From positions 1 to 46,787 of the forward strand of contig JAILNQ010000102.1 of assembly GCA_024691425.1 (NCBI GenBank): DNA of 46,787 nt, in the 5' to 3' direction. The number at the start of each line of letters is the position of its first letter. Within the stretch, counting starts at the first letter, position 1. This document shows, piece after piece, positions 9,165 through 32,124 of the stretch. This DNA comes from Lachnospiraceae bacterium (GTDB taxonomy: Bacteria; Bacillota; Clostridia; Lachnospirales; Lachnospiraceae). The notes beneath the pieces were generated by a model that saw only the letters and a program-made list of their open reading frames with translations, was not told where the DNA came from and ran no database searches. A program made the position numbers and the translations under genes.

Positions 9165-9470
9165 TTATCCGGTCCTGCCGGGAGAGGATATACGCCAGAC
9201 ATGGTCGTACGCGAAATAGACAAGGGTGATGGTCTTCTCATTTCCGAAACATGAGATCCTGCATTCAAACGGAAAGACTCCCGAGGTCGCGACCACTCCA
9301 TTCGGCATCTGGAATCTGCCCTTGTGAGACATGTCCCTGTAGGATCTGATCTTATACGCCTGAACCTGTCCGTCTTCGTCAGTAAGACGCACTTTCATCG
9401 GTATGATCGCCCCGTCCCTGCTATGCTGGCAGATCACATCAACTGCCTTGTCGTCATGATCGTTTTCCAT
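9165..9470 (-). CDS. Small LexA-controlled protein of unknown function, probably leaderless mRNA
   Basis: I do not recognise a named family. The start at 9470 is chosen because the minus-strand promoter places its predicted transcription start on the A of this ATG. An ATG six codons upstream (9488) lies inside the LexA box and upstream of the -10, so it would not be transcribed from this promoter. The 101-residue product has no signal peptide or membrane helix. It begins MENDHDDKAVDVICQHS and its composition suggests a compact beta-rich cytoplasmic domain (KVRLTDEDGQVQAYKI, FECRISCFG, TITLVYFAYDHVWRIS). Placement under an SOS operator suggests a DNA-damage role; that is inference. It converges on lysA with a 3-bp gap and diverges from the lipoprotein gene at 9526. 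Confidence 0.85.
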   Translation of the reverse strand: MENDHDDKAVDVICQHSRDGAIIPMKVRLTDEDGQVQAYKIRSYRDMSHKGRFQMPNGVVATSGVFPFECRISCFGNEKTITLVYFAYDHVWRISSPGRTG

Positions 9471-9476
9471 GACACG

Positions 9477-9505
9477 ATTATAGAACATATGTTCGAAAAT
9501 GTCAA
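9477..9505 (-). promoter_or_regulatory. Consensus sigma-A promoter with embedded LexA (SOS) box
   Basis: Read on the minus strand: TTGACA (9505-9500), a 17-nt spacer and TATAAT (9482-9477), a perfect consensus. The spacer contains the complete palindrome GAACATATGTTC (9494-9483), matching the Gram-positive LexA/DinR operator with a C at the 5' flank. A repressor bound here would block polymerase. Exactly 6 nt separate the -10 from the ATG at 9470, so the transcript should start at the AUG. Confidence 0.9.
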
Positions 9506-9525: not shown

Positions 9526-11961
9526 ATGCTTAGAAAATCATCCGCGATTCATATGTCATGCCTTGCCGCATTAGCGGCATCACTTCTTATTGCCTGTTCG
9601 GGTACCGACAGTGCGGCAACTTTCGAAGCACCGGCGGATACGGAAAGCGTGTCTTCTGACGACGTAAGCAGCAAGCCGGCTTCTGAAGATAATGAGAAGC
9701 AGCATAAAGGAACGATCCCCATGACGTGCACAAATACGTACACGAGCATGAAACGCAGCGATTATGAGGCCACGACGGGAATCATATATTCGTTCACACT
9801 TGATGGCGAAAGCGCAAAGGAATATCCCGAGCTTGCCGCAAAGATCGACGAGATCAACGAGGAAGCATATTCTGACTTCGTAGAATCGATGGAATCTGCG
9901 ACCGCACAGTCGCTGCAGAGGCATATGGACGGCTGGGGTTATCCTTACGAGGAGGATAGAACGGCAGCTATAACACGGGCGGATGAGCGTGCGTTTTCAT
10001 ATTATGTCTGCAATTTCTCGTATCTCGGCGGAGCTCACGGATACACGGATTTCAGCGCCGAGGCGATCGATTCAGTAACGGGTGAGGATATAGAGTTTCG
10101 TGATGTAGTAAAAGACGTGAGCGATTTTCCCCAGATCGTCTTTGATGAGCTTGTCAGGCAGTGCCCTGACATGGAAGGATATTTTGACGGACTCAGCACC
10201 GATAAAGAAAACCTTCTGGCGAGGATAAAGGAAGATGCATCCTCTGACGGACCGGTATGGTCTCTCGGATATGACGGCATCACGGTGTATTTTGAGGACT
10301 ATGCGATGGGTTCGTATGCCGCAGGCGCGCAGATCGTTGAAATACCGTACAGCAGCCACAGCGAGATATTTGATGAGAAATATTTCACATACGACGGGGA
10401 TGTCCCTGATGCCGCGTCCCATGTGAACACAAAGGAAGAAGACGCGAAACTGCCGCTTGTCAGCGAAAATACTATCATGCAGGTCGGATTCGACAGGGAA
10501 TTCAAGTTCGAGGACAAAGCTCCGTACAGCCTCGGAAACGCGGATAAATACATCATAGGCGATGACTATCCTGAACTGAAGAAGAAGGTTGATGCGCTAA
10601 ATGAAGCGGATGCTGCAAAGCTTGAGAATGCGTTCGGAGATTTCTGTAAAACAGCTGACAAGGATTATGAGGCTTACAAACAGAAGGAAGGTGATGATTT
10701 CCACGGACTGTGTGAATACGGCCTCTACAAATATCTTTCAAGGGCGGATGATAAAGCTTTCTCATATGCATCGGCAATATCCCGTATCGGAATAGCGAAG
10801 AACGAAAGGACGATCGTTGGCGTGAACATCGATCCGAAGACGGGTAAGGACTTAGCGCTCGATGACGTTGTAACCGACATATACTATCTTGAGGATGCGA
10901 TCGAAGAGGTGCTCGAGGACGAAGGATATCCGGATGCGACAACAAAGATGGCTTCTGACGAGCTTCATAAACAGATAAGCTCGAAGAATCTCATAAGCAA
11001 TGAGAAGCTTTCGTGGACGATAGGTTACGATGGACTGACGATATACTGCAACAACACGGTGAATTTCACGCTTATGGACTTCGGGGCGGATGCCGTGCCG
11101 ATCTTCATACCGTATAACCTGCATGATGATCTGTTCGTTGAAGGGTTTTCAGATGTACCGAAGTGTTATGCGTACCAGATTCCGGTTTCTGGCGCTTTCG
11201 GAACATCCGTTAAACTTGACACGGAGTTCAACGGAAAATATACGGATATCAACATATATCCGAGCATGAACGAATACGGCGAGATCGATGTGCTGACATT
11301 CGGGATCAACGGTTTTCTGAACCGTGTCGAGAATTTCTATTCGTCTGATCTGCTCATGACGGTTGTGAAGGATCCGATGGGCGACAGTCTGATCTATACG
11401 CAGTGCGCTGTTGATGACGGCGGCTTGTACATGCGCGTGTTTGATCTGTCGTACGGGAATCTGAATGAAGTCACCGAGGAAGACGACTATCCGGATCAGC
11501 AAGTTGTTTACTATGCAACTGAAACCAGAAGCGGGCATGTCATGACCGATCCGCTTGACTTTTACGTATTTCAGGTTGACTACACGCTCGGATACCGTGA
11601 TACCTATGCAAGGTGCTGCATAAGTTCTCTGGGAATTCCGAAGCCGATCGATGGAAAGTGGATGTACGGGAAAGATAATCATATGTACGACATCGCGGCC
11701 GCAACAGACATAAAGACCGATGCGGGTACTATCCGCAAGGGAGAGATATTCACGCCGGTCAGCATCGAGCCTGAGGCGGAAAATGCCTATTATGAGGATG
11801 AATCCGATGACAGAAAAATCAAGAAAAGCACACTGATGCTGAACGGAAAGTCAGGCAAGAAATTCAAGCTTGAGCTTGAAAGCACGAACGGATATGAATG
11901 GACTTATAACGGTACGGATGTGAAGAAGCTGTTTGACGGATTCTTCAACTATCCGGGATGA
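9526..11961 (+). CDS. Lipoprotein with two DUF3298/RsiV-like regions
   Basis: The protein has 811 residues. A lipoprotein signal ends at Cys24 (SLLIACSG), so it should be anchored to the outer face of the membrane. Residues ~65-290 resemble DUF4163/DUF3298 domains, including the typical YLGGAHGYT followed by SVTGEDIEFRDVV. Residues ~320-550 look like a second, degenerate copy (DPKTGKDLALDDVV, WTIGYDGLTIY) without the GGAHG motif. The last ~250 residues are unrecognised and end in a small lysine-rich region. This domain pair occurs in RsiV-type extracytoplasmic sensors, but this protein has no anti-sigma helix, so its role is unknown. GAGGTG lies 4 nt before the ATG. The SOS operator at 9483-9494 is only 31 bp upstream of the start. 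Confidence 0.85.
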   Translation: MLRKSSAIHMSCLAALAASLLIACSGTDSAATFEAPADTESVSSDDVSSKPASEDNEKQHKGTIPMTCTNTYTSMKRSDYEATTGIIYSFTLDGESAKEYPELAAKIDEINEEAYSDFVESMESATAQSLQRHMDGWGYPYEEDRTAAITRADERAFSYYVCNFSYLGGAHGYTDFSAEAIDSVTGEDIEFRDVVKDVSDFPQIVFDELVRQCPDMEGYFDGLSTDKENLLARIKEDASSDGPVWSLGYDGITVYFEDYAMGSYAAGAQIVEIPYSSHSEIFDEKYFTYDGDVPDAASHVNTKEEDAKLPLVSENTIMQVGFDREFKFEDKAPYSLGNADKYIIGDDYPELKKKVDALNEADAAKLENAFGDFCKTADKDYEAYKQKEGDDFHGLCEYGLYKYLSRADDKAFSYASAISRIGIAKNERTIVGVNIDPKTGKDLALDDVVTDIYYLEDAIEEVLEDEGYPDATTKMASDELHKQISSKNLISNEKLSWTIGYDGLTIYCNNTVNFTLMDFGADAVPIFIPYNLHDDLFVEGFSDVPKCYAYQIPVSGAFGTSVKLDTEFNGKYTDINIYPSMNEYGEIDVLTFGINGFLNRVENFYSSDLLMTVVKDPMGDSLIYTQCAVDDGGLYMRVFDLSYGNLNEVTEEDDYPDQQVVYYATETRSGHVMTDPLDFYVFQVDYTLGYRDTYARCCISSLGIPKPIDGKWMYGKDNHMYDIAAATDIKTDAGTIRKGEIFTPVSIEPEAENAYYEDESDDRKIKKSTLMLNGKSGKKFKLELESTNGYEWTYNGTDVKKLFDGFFNYPG

Positions 11962-32095: not shown

Positions 32096-32124
32096 TTGAC
32101 AAACCCCCGCGGTCTATGTATAAT
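32096..32124 (+). promoter_or_regulatory. Consensus sigma-A promoter of rpmF
   Basis: TTGACA (32096-32101), 17-nt spacer, TATAAT (32119-32124), a perfect match. The start near 32131 gives a ~39-nt leader with AAGGAGGTG 7-8 nt before the ATG, as expected for a strongly expressed ribosomal protein gene. Confidence 0.93.

What the first reader, a model, noticed from the sequence alone, without database searches (positions are those of the whole stretch)
9165..9505. LexA-controlled small gene with a predicted leaderless mRNA
A perfect TTGACA-17-TATAAT promoter on the minus strand carries the full palindrome GAACATATGTTC in its spacer, and the ATG sits exactly at the predicted transcription start (7th base after the -10). 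The 101-residue product has no family I can name. Gram-positive LexA binds GAAC-N4-GTTC sites; a damage-induced leaderless gene of unknown function is a strong candidate for a new SOS component.
Basis: partly seen in the sequence, partly recalled or inferred. Interest (0 to 1): 0.75.

Follow-up and report, generated by a model that had tools for sequence, protein, structure and literature searches.

The report
SOS-controlled ImuB-C-like repair-polymerase accessory protein
A small bacterial gene that looks set to be switched on by DNA damage encodes a distant, free-standing relative of a known accessory piece of error-prone repair polymerases, and its messenger seems to have lost the usual ribosome landing site; it extends a known kind rather than founding a new one.

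Summary
On the minus strand TTGACA-17-TATAAT (9505-9477) carries GAACATATGTTC (9483-9494) against the -10, and the ATG at 9470 lies on the predicted transcription start. LexA control is strongly supported: of 104 homologous places, 52 have a perfect GAACN4GTTC within 250 bp upstream (reversed motif: 0 of 104) and 37 others lie just behind a Y-family polymerase gene. Leaderlessness is local: of 31 loci with a recognisable box and -10, only this one and its nearest relative have leader length 0. The protein is not without family: its profile joins clostridial, often DinB-linked proteins (98.4%), and these join DUF6504, taken here as standalone ImuB-C (92.3%); the direct comparison fails (1.1%). 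Best reading: a LexA-repressed, divergent ImuB-C-like accessory of translesion synthesis, detached here from the UvrX-YolD pair, which has its own LexA box. Against: LexA was not found in this 83.8%-complete assembly, and the polymerase is common in the genus without this gene. Nothing was tested at the bench.

The parts
9500..9505 (-). -35 element TTGACA
   Evidence: at most one mismatch to TTGACA at this position in 24 of 31 loci
9483..9494 (.). LexA operator (SOS box) GAACATATGTTC in the spacer, touching the -10
   Evidence: perfect box upstream in 52 of 104 homologous places, control 0 of 104; the same 12 letters lie upstream of lexA in the nearest relative (L061)
9477..9482 (-). -10 element TATAAT
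9468..9470 (-). start codon ATG on the predicted transcription start (leader length 0, no ribosome-binding tract)
   Evidence: same in the nearest relative L001; start inferred, not mapped
9165..9470 (-). gene for a 101-residue, predicted all-beta protein, divergent and ImuB-C-like
   Evidence: profile links

Best explanation
The gene is a LexA-repressed SOS gene. Shown by sequence: the operator covers the promoter spacer against the -10, where a bound repressor would exclude RNA polymerase. Inferred: after DNA damage, RecA-stimulated LexA cleavage frees the promoter; the transcript begins on the A of the start codon and is translated as a leaderless mRNA; the product, a six-stranded beta protein of the ImuB-C kind, binds the SOS-induced Y-family polymerase (here UvrX with YolD, encoded elsewhere under its own LexA box) and/or RecA and helps place it at stalled forks, promoting translesion synthesis. 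In about half of the wider clostridial places examined (33 of 61 group-B places) the same kind of protein is encoded just behind dinB; in the Lachnospiraceae examined it is mostly a separate SOS unit.
For: Operator: 52 of 104 places perfect, control 0 of 104. Polymerase linkage: of the places without a perfect box, 37 lie within 700 bp downstream of a Y-family polymerase gene on the same strand; of 33 polymerase genes in these loci with readable upstream DNA, 25 have a perfect LexA box, control 0 of 33. Butyrivibrio proteoclasticus pCY186 has a Y-family polymerase, a YolD-like protein and this family as consecutive genes. In L021 the family domain lies behind a Y-family polymerase and shares an open frame with an upstream stretch that I read as a YolD-type N-terminal arm (my reading, Pfam finds no domain in that frame). 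The own genome's only detected Y-family polymerase has TTGACA-17-GATAAT with GAACGTCTGTTC in the spacer and is followed by a YolD-like gene. lexA promoters of the genus: of 26 readable loci, 25 have a box with at most one mismatch (control 1) and 11 a perfect one (control 0). Homology chain. All-beta model without a PDB counterpart at E 0.001, as reported for ImuB-C (PMC12926913, passage). Leader length 0 in both close species; A9 identical, V10 and D11 kept with synonymous changes between them, so translation should start upstream of codon 11.
Against: Direct comparison of the own subfamily with DUF6504 is not significant (1.1%), so ImuB-C membership is transitive. One-mismatch boxes (9 places) are no more than the control shows at that threshold (9 of 104). 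In the genus the gene is in 16 of 37 genomes while a Y-family polymerase is in 36 of 37, so polymerases are found without it; YolD detection does not clearly track it (6 of 16 with the gene, 4 of 21 without). LexA was not found in this assembly nor in G100, which also carries the gene. No LexA box was found within 200 bp of the pCY186 polymerase (L106). L108 and L022 have neither box nor polymerase neighbour in the stretch examined. No expression, binding or mutagenesis data. Leaderless mRNAs are reported as rare in mapped relatives (PMC5171806, PMC7438776, passages).
Confidence: 0.66

Rival explanations
1. LexA-controlled and SOS-induced, but not part of translesion synthesis: a damage-induced beta protein that binds something else (damaged DNA, RecA, a nuclease or a replication factor).
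For: None of the 17 places of the genus lies behind a polymerase gene; the polymerase is common without the gene. One homologue is followed by an Mrr-type nuclease gene (L005). ImuB-C has also been reported with Ku/ligase and SplB genes (PMC3765255 section 7).
Against: 37 of 104 homologous places sit behind a Y-family polymerase gene; pCY186 has polymerase, YolD-like and this protein in a row.
Confidence: 0.22
2. The mRNA is not leaderless: transcription starts further upstream, or translation starts at codon 12 (GTG here, ATG in the relative) behind an AAGG/AGGG tract.
For: Codon 12 has a possible ribosome-binding tract 8 nt upstream in both species (read from the sequence). In Clostridium phytofermentans the potentially leaderless genes generally have another upstream start site and a normal ribosome-binding site (PMC5171806, passage).
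Against: D11 is invariant in all 16 proteins and would be lost; the 33 nt ahead of codon 12 keep their length and frame between the two species. The nearest other minus-strand promoter-like site upstream is a 9-of-12 match at 9809-9781 (where such matches are no more frequent than in shuffles). A second frame in this genome (229 codons, plsY-like by my reading) also starts 8 nt past a TATAAT without a tract.
Confidence: 0.3
3. Not a LexA site: the palindrome arose by chance or serves another repressor.
For: The palindrome alone is expected 0.6 times per window; no lexA gene was found in this assembly.
Against: Conservation in place across homologues and in lexA and polymerase promoters of relatives; the assembly is 83.8% complete and 17 of 17 good genomes of the genus have LexA.
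Confidence: 0.05

Closest known systems
Standalone ImuB-C domain proteins (taken here as Pfam DUF6504, PF20114)
   Same: Small, predicted all-beta, invariant Trp near the C terminus, SOS-type control, relatives beside Y-family polymerases; profile link through the clostridial group A2.
   Different: The own subfamily has an extra stretch between the third and fourth strands (alignment), no direct profile match to DUF6504, its own promoter away from any polymerase, and here no leader. That DUF6504 is ImuB-C rests on its gene context and on recall.
Clostridial YqjH/DinB-linked ImuB-C (PMC6511836, passage)
   Same: Group A2 (40 sequences, 20 to 83% identical to its first row) fits: 23 of the 40 lie behind dinB, with LexA boxes ahead of most of the dinB genes examined.
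   Different: That paper's sequences were not at hand, so that the groups are the same is inferred from context. The window gene is alone.
YolD/YqjX and UmuD (small subunits of UvrX/YqjW and UmuC)
   Same: Small SOS-induced accessory proteins of a Y-family polymerase.
   Different: No YolD match for this protein; a separate YolD-like gene follows the own polymerase. PMC12926913 reports that the ImuB-C barrel differs from the SH3-type barrel of UmuD' and YqjX (passage).
[quoted passage not shown]
   Same: LexA-controlled standalone ImuB-C, role unsettled.
   Different: There it is in an operon with an inactive polymerase and DnaE2; here it is alone.

Membership tests
LexA (SOS) regulon of Gram-positive type | GAACN4GTTC operator within the promoter | tested here: met
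   conserved in homologues; consensus as quoted for B. subtilis in PMC4234289 (passage)
LexA (SOS) regulon of Gram-positive type | A LexA repressor encoded in the genome | tested here: inconclusive
   not found in the 83.8%-complete own assembly; present in 33 of 37 genus genomes
LexA (SOS) regulon of Gram-positive type | Induction by DNA damage through RecA and LexA | not testable with these tools
   needs expression data
Leaderless gene | Start codon at the transcription start, no ribosome-binding tract | tested here: inconclusive
   sequence fits; no 5' end mapped
ImuB-C / DUF6504 | Sequence-profile homology | tested here: inconclusive
   direct: not met (A1 against A3 1.1%; no DUF6504 hit among Pfam results). 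Through A2: met (A1 to A2 98.4%, E 6.4e-15 without shared rows; A2 to A3 92.3%, E 5.6e-7; reversed and shuffled controls at most 1.6%)
ImuB-C / DUF6504 | About 80 residues, mostly beta strands, conserved C-terminal Trp | tested here: met
   strands between residues 9 and 95, six of them; W92 in 16 of 16 and 48 of 48
ImuB-C / DUF6504 | Gene neighbourhood with a mutagenic polymerase | tested here: inconclusive
   not met for the own gene; met for 37 of 104 homologous places
ImuB-C / DUF6504 | Physical interaction with ImuA/RecA or a polymerase | not testable with these tools
   needs binding assays or complex modelling
YolD-like (PF08863) | Match to the YolD profile | tested here: not met
   a separate YolD-like gene exists in the genome

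The most novel reading that the evidence does not exclude
In Lachnospiraceae the ImuB-C subunit has been cut loose from its polymerase and turned into an independently dosed, SOS-induced switch for the UvrX-YolD-RecA mutasome; in this lineage a deletion removed the leader and ribosome-binding tract, so that its synthesis depends on leaderless initiation and could be favoured when ribosomes are altered by stress.
Probability: 0.2. Interest if true: 0.7.

Novelty: new variant of a known kind. Interest (0 to 1): 0.48.

Why it matters
The role of standalone ImuB-C is an open question (stated in PMC8072749, passage). A clostridial branch that keeps LexA-type control whether behind a polymerase gene or alone, with a named member on Butyrivibrio proteoclasticus pCY186 (WP_013283172.1), gives a concrete handle on it. 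The apparent leader loss between close species would be a natural test of leaderless translation of a stress gene in a group where leaderless mRNAs are reported as rare.

Tried and rejected
Weak Pfam hits of single members (Mrr_cat_2 in 3 of 16, best E 0.0032; PsiB in 1, E 0.12; others; different ones for group A2) were set aside: for the window protein they lie under the curated cut-offs, and no family is shared by more than 3 of 16 or 2 of 40 members. Two PDB sequence matches (filamentous haemagglutinin chains, E 0.0044 and 0.0072, 28 profile positions) were judged chance; A2 had none at E 1. Foldseek against the PDB gave no match at E 0.001 for either model. The viral library gave one good match, an uncharacterised siphovirus protein (A0A8S5PG70, E 4.7e-6, TM 0.67), not followed up in itself; homologues in viruses were sought with the window protein (one phage; none).

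YolD membership: rejected. Start at 9488 inside the operator and at codon 12: considered and judged unlikely (see rivals).

Literature: the listings of searches (each showing at most 15 papers, often of many more) held no paper that I recognised as describing a leaderless LexA-controlled gene of this kind or this lachnospiral subfamily; only openly licensed PMC papers are searched. PMC3765255: section 7 whole plus passages. PMC6511836, PMC12926913, PMC4234289, PMC8072749, PMC5171806, PMC7438776: passages only.

A fused ImuB was looked for in three places. In L171 and L172 the DUF6504 stretch lies at the end of an open frame of 677 and 257 codons whose earlier part I take for noise, beside frames that I read as polymerase-like and DnaE-like; in L173 no such neighbours were seen. 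A fused ImuB-C was thus not seen, nor strictly excluded. That Caulobacter, the only one of 14 control genomes where DUF6504 rings, has a fused ImuB is recalled.

Rows left out: one search used 35 loci of the own subfamily and left out L018 and L107 (duplicates of L003 and L001), L020 (frame with a stop), L024 (near-identical to L023) and L104-L106. One search left out L018 and L107 and kept places of at least 14 bits; related genomes are not independent. One search used 26 of 30 lexA loci (4 at contig edges). A2 holds 38 of the 61 group-B proteins plus L015 and L016. A3 holds 9 clear small frames from the 20 DUF6504 loci.

Full report
What is there. No ribosome-binding tract lies before the ATG. 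The palindrome alone is unremarkable (0.60 expected per window); the genome holds 26, fewer than its control motif (76), and 21 of the 25 other copies lie inside mechanical reading frames. Five of 26, this one included, lie between frames.

Homologues. A search of 150 genomes drawn from the family found the gene in 14; of 37 in the genus, 16 have it; a profile of 16 members found relatives in 68 of 391 genomes of the class. One phage record and one plasmid record also hold a homologue. Pfam, NCBIfam and PHROGs have no model for the window protein; the 16 members share no Pfam or NCBIfam family.

LexA control. In one search, 104 homologous places were classed: 52 with a perfect GAACN4GTTC within 250 bp upstream; of the rest, 37 within 700 bp downstream of a Y-family polymerase gene on the same strand; 9 with a one-mismatch box; 6 with neither (L108; L022; L020, whose frame holds a stop; L039, with a box at -352; L079, near a contig end; L096, whose locus holds a dinB gene with a box, outside the rule used). 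The reversed motif occurs perfectly in 0 of 104 and with at most one mismatch in 9, so the one-mismatch class by itself is no evidence. Of 33 polymerase genes in these loci with readable upstream DNA, 25 have a perfect box and 29 one with at most one mismatch; the reversed motif is perfect in 0 of 33. The pCY186 polymerase (L106) has none. Of 26 readable lexA promoters of the genus, 25 have a box with at most one mismatch (control 1) and 11 a perfect one (control 0); that of the nearest relative contains the very same twelve letters (L061). No lexA gene was found in the window's assembly (83.8% complete) or in G100, but 33 of 37 genus genomes, and 17 of 17 that are at least 90% complete and at most 5% contaminated, have one.

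Leader. In one search, 35 loci of the own subfamily were examined. Box and -10 were both recognised in 31 (at most one mismatch each); in 28 of the 31 the box touches the -10 as in the window. Leader length is 0, without any tract, only in the window and in L001 (Lachnospiraceae MAG RUI387, 77% identical protein; apparently the same genome appears as G536 and G563, compare). In the other 29 the first start codon with at least a three-base ribosome-binding match lies 8 to 97 nt downstream; the match is weak in L019, L114 and L119. An alignment of five genus members fits a lost stretch of leader in the two leaderless species, but is short and gapped. Four places in the genome match TTGAC-N18-19-TATAAT-N5-8-ATG; two head long frames, this one and a 229-codon frame that I read as plsY-like (name from recall), and two head frames of 14 and 10 codons. 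Leaderless mRNAs are reported as uncommon in Clostridium phytofermentans (PMC5171806, passages) and Clostridioides difficile (PMC7438776, passage).

What the protein is. The alignment of 16 has invariant D11, P24, R28, D31, F68, C70 and W92. AlphaFold2 gives six strands (mean pLDDT 79.9 with 16 rows, 81.6 with 48) and Foldseek finds no PDB counterpart at E 0.001. Of the wider clostridial relatives in alignment A2 (40 rows), 23 sit behind dinB. PMC3765255 (section 7) describes ImuB-C as beta-rich with a conserved C-terminal tryptophan, often standalone beside DinB or with UmuC and YolD; PMC6511836 (passage) reports its coupling with YqjH polymerases mostly from Clostridia; PMC12926913 (passage) reports a beta-barrel with no close PDB structure. 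In Bacillota, the DUF6504 stretches of L161 and L163-L170 lie beside frames that I read as Y-polymerase-like and/or DnaE-like, the arrangement described for standalone ImuB-C. Profile comparison: own subfamily against A2 98.4%, E 6.4e-15 after removing the two shared rows (99.7% with them); A2 against DUF6504 92.3%, E 5.6e-7, with reversed and eight shuffled controls at most 1.6%; own subfamily against DUF6504 directly 1.1%, not significant. Membership is therefore transitive.

Partners in this genome. One Y-family polymerase was detected, frame C104:2255-3751, with TTGACA-17-GATAAT and GAACGTCTGTTC in the spacer, followed by an overlapping YolD-like gene (Pfam E 4.8e-6, 27.0 bits against a cut-off of 27.5). 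The nearest relative has a like pair (YolD E 8.6e-4). Butyrivibrio proteoclasticus pCY186 has polymerase, YolD-like and this family in a row. Against an obligatory partnership: a Y-family polymerase is in 36 of 37 genus genomes, the gene in 16, and YolD was detected in 6 of 16 genomes with the gene and 4 of 21 without. The name UvrX-type is my reading from the YolD neighbour.

Mechanism. Shown by sequence: operator position and conservation, polymerase linkage of relatives, the homology chain. Inferred: LexA release after damage, leaderless initiation, and an accessory role in translesion synthesis. PMC3765255 proposed DNA binding for ImuB-C and PMC12926913 modelled contacts with ImuA and DnaE2; neither was tested here.

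Verdict. A well-placed SOS gene by its sequence; a divergent branch of a known accessory kind, detached from its polymerase, with a local loss of the leader.

Noticed in passing
9526-11961 (+): The divergent gene (lipoprotein-like by its N terminus; Pfam PdaC and DUF3298) starts 32 bp from the operator and could share LexA control; the divergent pair is also seen in L001.
   Followed up: no
G000:C104:2255-4146 (L149): Y-family polymerase (UvrX-type by my reading) and overlapping YolD-like gene with a LexA box in the promoter spacer, the same architecture as the window gene.
   Followed up: partly
G000:C32:4626-4665 (L205): Second candidate leaderless start: TATAAT, 8 nt, ATG of a 229-codon frame that looks plsY-like, no ribosome-binding tract.
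   Followed up: no
L105:3986-4267 (phage PV036455.1, 29279-29560): A phage of Lachnospiraceae carries a homologue on the strand opposite to most of its neighbours, not far from the terminase gene, with a one-mismatch box upstream.
   Followed up: partly
L104 (G495:C8:2923 and 8399) and L020: One genome has two copies 5.5 kb apart with equal scores, and two further places whose frames hold a stop.
   Followed up: no
L021:1321-1776: The family domain shares an open frame with an upstream stretch resembling a YolD N-terminal arm, right behind a Y-family polymerase; it may be a fusion or merely an open frame, since an inner start with its own tract exists.
   Followed up: partly
G000:C53:19-30 (L131): A GAACAACTGTTC site with a further half-site lies upstream of a small heat-shock-like gene (my reading) at a contig edge.
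   Followed up: no
32096-32124 (+): A second perfect TTGACA-17-TATAAT in the window.
   Followed up: no
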